Below, piece after piece: positions 24,268-33,660 of a stretch of DNA of 64,000 nt. Source of the DNA: Candidatus Anammoximicrobium sp. (GTDB taxonomy: Bacteria > Planctomycetota > Planctomycetia > Pirellulales > Pirellulaceae); contig JAAYYU010000255.1 of assembly GCA_012515235.1 (NCBI GenBank), positions 1-64,000 on the forward strand. The letters are read 5' to 3'. Numbering within the stretch: the stretch's first letter is position 1; every line of letters starts with the position of its first letter. The translations under genes were made by a program, and so were the position numbers. Below the pieces are notes generated by a model. The model ran no database searches. It saw only the letters and a list, made by a program, of their open reading frames with translations, and was not told the origin of the DNA.

Positions 24268-24542
24268 CGTCTTCTCCCTCTACCGCCGCGTTTCATGCAG
24301 CCGCACCCGGCGAAACACGACGGCCTGTAGTCTATCGCAAGCAGCCGGACGTTCCCAAGCACCCTGGAGGCCGGCTTCTTGGAAAAGCCGAGCGGCTTCC
24401 GGCGGCGGAGACTCGACGTCAACCCCGAAAGCCCGCCCGCGACGACGCCTCGAAACCCCCCTAATGATTGGGACACGCACGCCACAACGCGATCTGTCCC
24501 GTCGGCAGTTTTTTGCAGACTGCGGGAAGACGGTCGAGCGGA

Positions 24543-24597
24543 TTCCAGCGAAGCGTGCAGACCTTGCAGTTGCTCTCGCCGCACGCGAACGTTGGAA
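24543..24597. promoter_or_regulatory. Imperfect inverted repeat upstream of the sigma-54 site (possible activator-binding site)
   Basis: TTCCAgCGaaGCGTGC (24543-24558) ... GCACGCgaaCGtTGGAA (24581-24597). Confidence 0.35.
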
Positions 24598-24649
24598 AAC
24601 GGCGGAGAAGGCGGCTGTCACTGCCAAGGTTGTTCAAATAGCCGGCACA

Positions 24650-24665
24650 CGGCACGCGGCTTGCA
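24650..24665 (+). promoter_or_regulatory. Sigma-54 (-24/-12) promoter for the EIIA-Ehr operon
   Basis: CGGCACGCGGCTTGCA against consensus TGGCACGN4TTGCW; GG-N10-GC spacing exact; ~110 bp upstream of the first ORF. Confidence 0.65.
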
Positions 24666-31345: not shown

Positions 31346-32862
31346 TCGCCAGACACGTCTGCTCGTCGAATTGCCAGCCGCTCGCCCTGAGCGCGATCCC
31401 GGTGTTGCCGGGCGATGACTTCCGCGACGAACTGGCGGGCCAGTTGACCGCCGGCTGCCAGTTGTCTGCGCTGTTCGGCCAGCCCTGCAGCAGCCAGTCG
31501 GTGCGGTTGTATGCGATCACGAGCGAGACGGCGGCGGCCGCGCTGCGCGTGTTCGCCACGGACGTGTCCGACCGCTATCCGGCGCTCACGCCGCACTGCC
31601 CGGCGGCCCACTGGTTCGAGCGTGAAATCGCCGAGCAGTGGGGCCTCAAGCCCGAGGGGCATCCCTGGTTCAAGCCGATTCGCTTCCATCCTTCCTACCG
31701 CGCCGGCCGCGACGCCTGGAACCGGGAGCCGGGACGGGCGATCCAGCCGTGCGTGACCGATTATTTCCGCGTCGCCGGGGAAGAGGTTCACGAGGTGGCG
31801 GTGGGGCCGGTCCATGCGGGCGTGATCGAACCGGGCCATTTCCGCTTCCAGTGTCTGGGCGAGCGCGTCTTGCATTTGGAGATCGAACTGGGCTACCAGC
31901 ATCGCGGCGTTGAACGGCGACTGGCCGGCGGCCCGGACAAGCGCACGGTCCACTACCTGGAGACCCTCGCCGGCGACACGACGATCGGGCACACGACGGC
32001 CTACTGTCAGGCGGTCGAGGCCCTGGCCGGCCGGGAAGCCTCCCTGCGCGCCCAGGCGTTGCGGGCCGTGGCGTTGGAGCTGGAACGGCTGGCGAATCAC
32101 ACGGGCGACCTGGGCGCGCTGGCGGTGGATGTGGGCTTTCTGCCGACGTCCGCCTTCTGCGGCCGGCTGCGCGGCGATTTCCTGAACACCACCGCAGTGC
32201 TCTGCGGCAGCCGGTTTGGGCGCGGGCTGGTGCGGCCCGGCGGCGTGGTGTTCGACGTCGATCCGCCGCGGTGCGACGACATCCTGAGCCGCGTGGCGCG
32301 GACCTATAAGGATGTCGCCGGGGCGGTGGAACTGCTCTGGCACTCGCCGTCGGCGATGGCCCGCTATGACGGGACGGGCGTGGTGCCGCGGGCGGTCTGC
32401 GACCAGTTGGGACTGGTCGGTTTGGCCGCGCGGGCCTGCGGCGTGGACCGGGACGCGCGGCGCGATTTCCCGGCGGGATTCTTCCGGTTCGCGCAGGTCC
32501 CCGTGTCCACCTGGCACACCGGCGACGTCTTCGCGCGAGCCTACGTGCGGTGGCTGGAGGTGCAGCGTTCCACGCGGTTCGTCAGCGAACAACTGCGGGC
32601 CTTGCCGCGCGGCGAGCCGCGGCGGGACCTCGGACCGTTGCGGCCCGACGCCCTGGTGGTCTCGTTGGTGGAGGGCTGGCGCGGCGAAATCTGCCACGTG
32701 GCCGTCACCGGTGGCGACGGGCGTTTCACCCACTACAAAGTCGTCGATCCTTCGTTCCGCAACTGGATCGGCCTGGCGATGGCGCTGCGCAACGAACCGA
32801 TCTCGGATTTTCCGGTGTGCAACAAGAGCTTCAATCTCTCGTACTGCGGGCATGATTTGTGA
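31342..32862 (+). CDS. HyfG/NuoCD-like large subunit lacking [NiFe] cysteine ligands (Ehr type)
   Basis: N-terminal NuoC-like WFEREIAEQWGLKPEGHP; LEIELGYQHRGVERRL; LETLAGDTTIGHTTAYCQAVEAL; C-terminus KSFNLSYCGHDL; ATGA overlap with HyfF-like gene. Confidence 0.88.
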   Translation: MIARHVCSSNCQPLALSAIPVLPGDDFRDELAGQLTAGCQLSALFGQPCSSQSVRLYAITSETAAAALRVFATDVSDRYPALTPHCPAAHWFEREIAEQWGLKPEGHPWFKPIRFHPSYRAGRDAWNREPGRAIQPCVTDYFRVAGEEVHEVAVGPVHAGVIEPGHFRFQCLGERVLHLEIELGYQHRGVERRLAGGPDKRTVHYLETLAGDTTIGHTTAYCQAVEALAGREASLRAQALRAVALELERLANHTGDLGALAVDVGFLPTSAFCGRLRGDFLNTTAVLCGSRFGRGLVRPGGVVFDVDPPRCDDILSRVARTYKDVAGAVELLWHSPSAMARYDGTGVVPRAVCDQLGLVGLAARACGVDRDARRDFPAGFFRFAQVPVSTWHTGDVFARAYVRWLEVQRSTRFVSEQLRALPRGEPRRDLGPLRPDALVVSLVEGWRGEICHVAVTGGDGRFTHYKVVDPSFRNWIGLAMALRNEPISDFPVCNKSFNLSYCGHDL

Positions 32863-32871
32863 GCGACGAAC

Positions 32872-33660
32872 ATGTTTTCCATCCTCGCTGAACGCCTTCG
32901 ACAAGGGCACCGCACGATCTCGTTCCCGGCGGGCGATTCGCCGCGGCTTCCGGACCGCTTCCGCGGCTTGCCCGTGCTGGACGCGGCCAAGTGTACGGGC
33001 GATTGCCGGCGCTGCGCCGAAGCCTGCCCGACGGACGCGATCGCGCTCGCGGACAACGGGCCTCGTCTGGACCTGGGCCGCTGTCTGTTCTGCGGCGAGT
33101 GCGCGCAGGCTTGCCCCGCAAACGCCATCGCCTTTTCCCAGGACTATCGGCTGGCGTCGCGGACCCGCAAGGACTTGCTGATCGACGGGCGCACGTTCCG
33201 GCTGGCCGAAGCGTTGGACGACAAGGCGCGCCGGCTGTTCGGCCGTTCGCTGCAGTTGCGGCAGGTCAGCGCGGGCGGCTGCAACGCCTGCGAGGCAGAC
33301 ATCAACGTGCTCACCACCGTGGTCTTCGATCTGGGGCGTTTTGGAATCCAGCTCGTCGCCTCGCCGCGGCACGCCGACGGCTTGCTGATCACCGGCCCCG
33401 TCACCGAGCACATGCGGCTGGCGCTGCGCAAGACGTACGAAGCGACGCCGGCTCCTAAACTGGTCATCGCGGTGGGGGCCTGCGCGATCGCCGGTGGACC
33501 GTTCGCCGGCCACTCCGAACAACACGACGGGGCGGACAGCACGGTGCCCGTGGATCTGTACATTCCCGGCTGCCCGCCCCATCCACTGACGATCCTGGAC
33601 GGCCTGCTGCGTCTGTTGGGCCGCCTCGGCCCGGAGGGCGCCCGGCCCGCCGCGCGGTGA
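32872..33660 (+). CDS. Fused 2[4Fe-4S] ferredoxin (HyfH-like) - small subunit (HyfI/NuoB-like)
   Basis: CTGDCRRCAEACPTDAI and CLFCGECAQACPANAI; GGCNACEADI, VGACAIAGGPF, PGCPPHP proximal-cluster motifs. Confidence 0.88.
   Translation: MFSILAERLRQGHRTISFPAGDSPRLPDRFRGLPVLDAAKCTGDCRRCAEACPTDAIALADNGPRLDLGRCLFCGECAQACPANAIAFSQDYRLASRTRKDLLIDGRTFRLAEALDDKARRLFGRSLQLRQVSAGGCNACEADINVLTTVVFDLGRFGIQLVASPRHADGLLITGPVTEHMRLALRKTYEATPAPKLVIAVGACAIAGGPFAGHSEQHDGADSTVPVDLYIPGCPPHPLTILDGLLRLLGRLGPEGARPAAR

What the first reader, a model, noticed from the sequence alone, without database searches (positions are those of the whole stretch)
24268..33660. Candidate system: sigma-54-controlled operon of two PTS EIIA sensors plus a cysteine-less group-4 hydrogenase-like (Ehr) proton-pump complex
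Seen: eight same-strand genes with ATGA overlaps (HTH-EIIA/HyfB and HyfF/HyfG): EIIA, HTH-EIIA, HyfB, HyfC, HyfE, HyfF, HyfG and a ferredoxin-HyfI fusion. They start just downstream of a -24/-12 sigma-54 element and are divergent from an NtrB/NtrC-type pair. Established: EIIA proteins are phosphorylatable on His by the PTS/PTSNtr cascade, and group-4-like complexes couple ferredoxin/NAD(P)H-type electron transfer to ion pumping. Inference: a redox-driven ion pump under carbon/nitrogen-status (PTSNtr-like) and two-component control. I do not know of a described system combining these parts.
Basis: partly seen in the sequence, partly recalled or inferred. Interest (0 to 1): 0.82.

Follow-up and report, generated by a model that had tools for sequence, protein, structure and literature searches.

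The report
PTS sensor controls hydrogenase-like proton pump
Bacteria from about twelve phyla keep a sugar-phosphorelay sensor fused to a DNA-binding domain directly beside the genes for a hydrogenase-like ion pump of unknown function, and in about a third of the relatives a matching DNA repeat lies on the promoter, so the cell's carbon-energy signal probably switches this pump on and off.

Summary
Window 24773-33660 holds EIIA, HTH-EIIA, HyfB, C, E, F, G and a ferredoxin-HyfI fusion, divergent from an NtrB/NtrC-type pair, with one -24/-12 element. HyfG lacks both nickel motifs (CGIC to AGDT, DPCxxC to NLSYCG): it is an Ehr complex.

Survey: the HTH-EIIA gene lies beside Ehr in 51 of 66 evaluable loci of about 12 phyla. 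In a 399-genome phylum sample the two co-occur (23 of 26, p=1e-24). The phosphorylatable histidine is nearly always kept; HPr and EI are present in 41 and 42 of 43 genomes. NtrBC and the sigma-54 site are not conserved: they belong to this lineage.

New: in 22 of 59 relatives, tandem direct repeats TGTCYWA-N3-TGTCYWA (10-bp period; 0.7 expected) lie on the promoter. They resemble BldC sites, and the HTH shares BldC's recognition Lys and Arg. In five genomes the strict pattern occurs six times, five of them exactly here. It is absent where HTH-EIIA is absent. The window has lost the site and the helix lysine.

Best model: a PTS-responsive, BldC-like local regulator of a redox-driven ion pump. 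In near relatives Ehr genes sit beside DabA and SulP, hinting at inorganic carbon.

The parts
21551..22903 (-). NtrC/AtoC-type response regulator (receiver, sigma-54 activation AAA+, Fis HTH)
   Evidence: Pfam PF00072, PF00158 (1e-70), PF02954; NCBIfam closest AtoC/NtrC, below cut-offs
22900..24267 (-). Membrane histidine kinase, two predicted TM, PAS, HisKA, HATPase (AtoS/NtrB-like)
24650..24665 (+). -24/-12 (sigma-54) promoter-like element CGGCACGCGGCTTGCA, 107 bp before the EIIA start
   Evidence: only core match in window; p about 0.0035 in 400 bp; rpoN in genome; not conserved in relatives
24773..25267 (+). Stand-alone EIIA (PtsN-like), GNGVAFPHVR, phosphoacceptor His79
   Evidence: PF00359 6e-19; PDB PtsN chains; 34% identical to the genome's own ptsN-like gene
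25278..25949 (+). HTH_17-EIIA fusion: BldC/excisionase-type winged HTH plus PtsN-type EIIA, His136
   Evidence: PF12728 + PF00359; AlphaFold pLDDT 88, Foldseek top PtsN 3urr TMt 0.78; His136 invariant in 26 aligned sequences
25946..28015 (+). HyfB (antiporter-like subunit); E141, K225, K256, K302, E408 conserved
   Evidence: PF00361 2.7e-50; conservation
28030..28965 (+). HyfC (NuoH-like)
   Evidence: PF00146 1.8e-33
29041..29694 (+). HyfE (NuoK-like)
   Evidence: PF00420, NF008556
29810..31345 (+). HyfF (antiporter-like subunit); E139, K227, K306, E400 conserved
   Evidence: PF00361 9.9e-53; conservation
31342..32862 (+). HyfG / EhrL, large subunit without Ni ligands (TLAGDTT and SFNLSYCGHDL)
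   Evidence: PF00329 + PF00346; FHL HycE 7z0s_E top in sequence and fold; motifs
32872..33660 (+). 2[4Fe-4S] ferredoxin fused to HyfI / EhrS small subunit; 8 + 4 cysteines conserved
   Evidence: PF12838, PF01058; cysteine conservation

Best explanation
The unit is an Ehr complex (HyfB/C/E/F/G plus ferredoxin-HyfI) under a dedicated local regulator, HTH-EIIA. Shown: gene content, widespread linkage, intact phospho-His, presence of EI and HPr, and a direct-repeat site on the promoter of many relatives. Inferred: PEP phosphorylates EI, HPr and then His136 of HTH-EIIA. The phosphorylation state changes how the winged HTH stacks head-to-tail on the repeats. This represses or frees the promoter, so the ion pump is made according to the PEP/pyruvate (carbon and energy) state. 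The complex itself would pass electrons from a ferredoxin-level donor through its three FeS clusters to an unknown acceptor and couple this to H+ or Na+ translocation by HyfB/HyfF. In the window's lineage the operator is gone; a sigma-54 promoter, an NtrBC-type pair and a second EIIA have been added.
For: Adjacency in 51/66 evaluable loci and in 68/90 operons, scattered over the whole HyfG tree. 399-genome sample: 23 of 26 genomes with strong HTH-EIIA have Ehr, Fisher p=1e-24, in the same operon in the regions inspected except where contigs end. EIIA stays with HyfG even where the membrane genes are elsewhere (L014, L111). His136 invariant in 26. Own genome has hpf-ptsN-HPr-EI with GLHIRP and GHTAI active sites; HPr in 41/43 and EI in 42/43 Ehr genomes. 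Operator: 22/59 score at least 12/14 versus 0.7 in shuffles and 0.3 in random windows; period exactly 10 bp in 23 pairs versus 0.2. Strict pattern: 6 hits in five genomes (about 23 Mb), 5 of them at this site. TTGACA starts 28 bp upstream of the repeats in 6 versus 0.02 expected, so the repeats abut the -10. None of 21 Ehr operons without HTH-EIIA has it. A helix with K/R as in BldC (Lys26, Arg30; PMC5859096) goes with the operator in 21 of 22, p=1.5e-6. Proton-path residues conserved.
Against: 37 of 59 upstream regions, and the window, lack this operator. The phylogeny-corrected helix-operator test is underpowered (1.1 pairs for, 0 against). Two lineages (L053, L084) keep a perfect operator but lost the EIIA histidine. 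15 evaluable operons have no EIIA beside them. Nearly all genomes are MAGs; start sites are approximate. HPr and EI presence was not compared with genomes without Ehr. No expression, binding or phosphorylation data.
Confidence: 0.62

Rival explanations
1. The EIIA domain acts on the protein complex itself: EIIA binds HyfB or HyfF and gates ion flow, as unphosphorylated PtsN does with TrkA and the K+/H+ antiporter YcgO. The HTH would be secondary.
For: PtsN binds TrkA, YcgO and KdpD (PMC13104625). HTH-EIIA relatives also sit, with an ATGA-type overlap, before a ClC transporter (L178, L179). Some Verrucomicrobia carry EIIA between HyfB and HyfC. The window has a second EIIA with no HTH.
Against: The HTH is conserved in almost all copies and a fitting operator lies on the promoter of many.
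Confidence: 0.15
2. Ehr here is a redox-powered inorganic-carbon pump, like cyanobacterial NDH-1MS, and EIIA matches CO2 uptake to PEP demand.
For: Nearest relative L014: HTH-EIIA, HyfG, HyfI, DabA, DabB-like, NuoM-like, SulP fused to a PII domain. SulP near the unit in L111, L018, L090, L062. The distant Ehr in G014 is preceded by DabA. NDH-1MS couples ferredoxin oxidation to CO2 hydration (PMC13144422).
Against: No DabA or SulP homologue of these was found in the 64-kb window or in most of the other loci; flanking genes are otherwise unrelated.
Confidence: 0.12
3. The operon is governed mainly by the divergent NtrBC-type pair through sigma-54, as first proposed, and the EIIAs are minor.
For: Good -24/-12 match, rpoN, divergent activator.
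Against: Neither part is conserved next to Ehr in relatives. By reading, the RR has GAYSGA in place of GAFTGA. True at most for this lineage.
Confidence: 0.08
4. The complex is an active [NiFe]-hydrogenase or formate hydrogenlyase.
For: Closest solved relative is E. coli FHL HycE.
Against: All four Ni-ligand cysteines are replaced by conserved other residues throughout the clade.
Confidence: 0.02

Closest known systems
Ehr, energy-converting hydrogenase-related complexes (Coppi; Marreiros 2013; Geobacter GSU0739-0745)
   Same: Same subunits, same loss of the Ni cysteines; Geobacter Ehr is 56% identical in the large subunit (L052, L076)
   Different: The EIIA regulator and its operator were not found described for Ehr in the papers searched
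PTSNtr EIIA (PtsN)
   Same: Fold and phospho-His; precedent for control of ion transport (PMC13104625)
   Different: Fused to a winged HTH and tied to one adjacent operon
BldC (PMC5859096)
   Same: Winged HTH with Lys and Arg in the recognition helix; direct repeats containing GGACA (CAATTCGGACAATTCGGACA)
   Different: 10-bp instead of 9-bp period; an EIIA sensor domain is attached; BldC is a pleiotropic developmental regulator
E. coli hydrogenase-4 / FHL (hyf/hyc)
   Same: Subunit set, closest solved large subunit
   Different: No Ni site; HyfH-like and HyfI parts fused; different regulator
NDH-1MS and DAB CO2 pumps
   Same: Complex-I-like membrane parts; DabA/SulP neighbours in a few relatives
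   Different: DabB2 lacks the ion-pair motifs (PMC13144422) whereas HyfB keeps them; no DabA in the window

Membership tests
Ehr complex | Group-4-like large subunit without CxxC Ni motifs | tested here: met
   AGDT and NLSYCG replace CGIC and DPCxxC
Ehr complex | Membrane arm of antiporter-like, NuoH-like and HyfE-like subunits with small FeS subunit | tested here: met
Ehr complex | Redox-coupled ion translocation | not testable with these tools
   residues conserved, no assay
[NiFe]-hydrogenase group 4 | Four cysteines binding Ni-Fe | tested here: not met
Complex I (NuoD) | Quinone-site Tyr (RLDY motif) in the 49-kDa subunit | tested here: inconclusive
   position reads Gly in AGDT when aligned by hand from recalled complex-I sequence; not computed
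PTS EIIA (PtsN type) | PF00359 fold and phosphoacceptor His | tested here: met
PTS EIIA (PtsN type) | Phosphorylated by HPr | not testable with these tools
   EI and HPr present
BldC-like regulators | Winged HTH binding tandem direct repeats head-to-tail | tested here: inconclusive
   repeats found in relatives, not in the window; weak HTH_BldC hit, 25 bits versus cut-off 77; binding untested
Sigma-54-dependent operon | -24/-12 element with linked activator and rpoN | tested here: met
   sequence level only; no transcript mapped

The most novel reading that the evidence does not exclude
The Ehr-HTH-EIIA unit is a phosphorelay-gated, redox-driven inorganic-carbon pump: a counterpart outside cyanobacteria of NDH-1MS, built from hydrogenase-like parts with DabA/SulP partners in some lineages and controlled by PEP through a BldC-type filament.
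Probability: 0.1. Interest if true: 0.88.

Novelty: new variant of a known kind. Interest (0 to 1): 0.64.

Why it matters
Ehr complexes are common and their function is unknown in the literature read here. A conserved PTS-type sensor with a defined DNA site in many phyla gives a first concrete handle: it predicts when Ehr is needed (by PEP/pyruvate state), names the regulator and operator to test, and would extend regulatory PTS control to an energy-converting membrane complex through a BldC-like DNA-binding mode joined to a phosphorylatable sensor.

Tried and rejected
Conserved sigma-54 site upstream of relatives: about 9% at p<0.05, near chance. Conserved NtrBC: only L031 and L023 (plus one RR in L032) have such genes on the upstream side. 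Conserved enzymatic partner in the flanks: none; families occur once or twice among 31 upstream and 34 downstream genes. TGTCYWA operator in the window: absent; no other strong 9-11 bp direct repeat there. Operator before the ClC-linked HTH-EIIA: not found. Phylogeny-corrected covariation of helix and operator: too few pairs. The HyfG model (pLDDT 69) was used for fold matching only; its active-site region is too uncertain to interpret. Papers linking Ehr or hydrogenase-4 with EIIA: none found.

Full report
What is there. The window lies in a 9.7-Mb draft genome (94.9% complete, 7.6% contamination) that behaves as a planctomycete in the tree of its relatives. The large subunit is a 30K-49K fusion whose closest solved relative is the formate hydrogenlyase subunit HycE, by sequence and by predicted fold. 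Both nickel-binding motifs are replaced: CGIC by AGDT, DPCxxC by NLSYCG, kept throughout the clade. All eight ferredoxin and four small-subunit cysteines, and the Glu/Lys residues of the proton paths in HyfB and HyfF, are conserved. It is therefore an Ehr complex, known from Geobacter, Nitrospira and others, function unknown (PMC6349859, PMC10284858, PMC7894505).

Is the EIIA linkage real? Eighty loci from many phyla were fetched with the large subunit. An HTH-EIIA gene of about 220-250 residues lies beside Ehr in 51 of 66 loci with enough sequence, most often directly before HyfB with a few bases between or an overlap. On the HyfG tree the trait is present in all major branches, with repeated losses (68 of 90 operons); phyla include Planctomycetota, Verrucomicrobiota, Thermodesulfobacteriota, Myxococcota, Acidobacteriota, Spirochaetota, Fibrobacterota, Omnitrophota, Zixibacteria, Lentisphaerota, Gemmatimonadota and UBP9. 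In an independent sample of 399 genomes of the window's phylum, Ehr and strong HTH-EIIA co-occur (23 of 26; Fisher p = 1e-24) and lie in the same operon in the regions inspected. More distant Ehr-like clusters (35-49% identity) do not have it.

Can it be phosphorylated? His136 is invariant in 26 aligned sequences. The predicted structure (pLDDT 88) matches PtsN. The genome has an hpf-EIIA-HPr-EI cluster with active-site motifs in place. HPr is found in 41 and EI in 42 of 43 Ehr genomes tested; the baseline in genomes without Ehr was not measured, so this shows capacity, not association.

What does the HTH do? A k-mer screen upstream of the HTH-EIIA genes brought up TGTCCAA. It forms tandem direct repeats with a period of exactly 10 bp: 22 of 59 upstream regions score 12 or more of 14, against 0.7 in shuffles and 0.3 in random windows; 23 pairs at spacing 10 against 0.2 expected. 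In five genomes the strict pattern occurs six times, five of them at this promoter. A TTGACA box starts 28 bp before the first repeat in six loci (0.02 expected), so the repeats abut the -10 box. The 21 Ehr operons without HTH-EIIA that were scanned never have the repeats. The recognition helix [SNT]EKTVYRW carries Lys and Arg in the positions that BldC uses (Lys26, Arg30), and BldC binds direct repeats with GGACA head-to-tail (PMC5859096); the operator's other strand reads TTGGACA. The match of helix positions rests on my own alignment to the BldC sequence from memory. Operators go with K/R helices (21 of 22; p = 1.5e-6), but correction for relatedness leaves too few pairs. The position suggests repression; this is inference.

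The window is a derived case. Its helix reads SAGTVARW (Lys lost), no such operator is present, and instead there are a sigma-54 element, rpoN elsewhere, an NtrBC-type pair and a second, HTH-less EIIA. The sigma-54 part rests on one good match and is not seen in relatives.

A lead on purpose. In the row nearest to the window on the tree (L014), HTH-EIIA, HyfG and HyfI are followed by DabA, a DabB-like protein, a NuoM-like protein and a SulP transporter fused to a PII domain. SulP genes also lie near the unit in L111, L018, L090 and L062, and the distant Ehr of G014 is preceded by DabA. This suggests that in some lineages Ehr is tied to CO2/bicarbonate uptake. Most loci, and the window, lack such neighbours.

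Verdict. The core finding is real and larger than stated: a conserved Ehr-HTH-EIIA unit, in many lineages with its own operator. The sigma-54/NtrBC part is local. The biochemical role of Ehr and the effect of phosphorylation remain inferred.

Noticed in passing
L178:6714-9130, L179:6444-8857: A related HTH-EIIA gene overlaps the start of a ClC chloride transporter with a CBS domain in another planctomycete family, hinting that HTH-EIIA proteins control ion transporters more widely.
   Followed up: partly
L053:4286-4972, L084:4088-4918: These HTH-EIIA proteins lost the phosphoacceptor histidine but their promoters carry the most perfect tandem operators.
   Followed up: no
L014:3-12371: HTH-EIIA, HyfG, HyfI, DabA, DabB-like, NuoM-like and a SulP-PII fusion in one same-strand cluster.
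   Followed up: partly
L107:1-4083 (G000:C108): A 1360-residue frame of the window's own genome joins an EIIA domain to an octopine-dehydrogenase-like domain.
   Followed up: no
L191:7819-9411: A distant Ehr-like large subunit in one planctomycete family keeps both Cys motifs (CGVC, LCYSC) and may be a real group-4 hydrogenase.
   Followed up: no
L067:4222-19904: Two complete Ehr-like operons in tandem in one Verrucomicrobia genome, the second of a divergent type.
   Followed up: no
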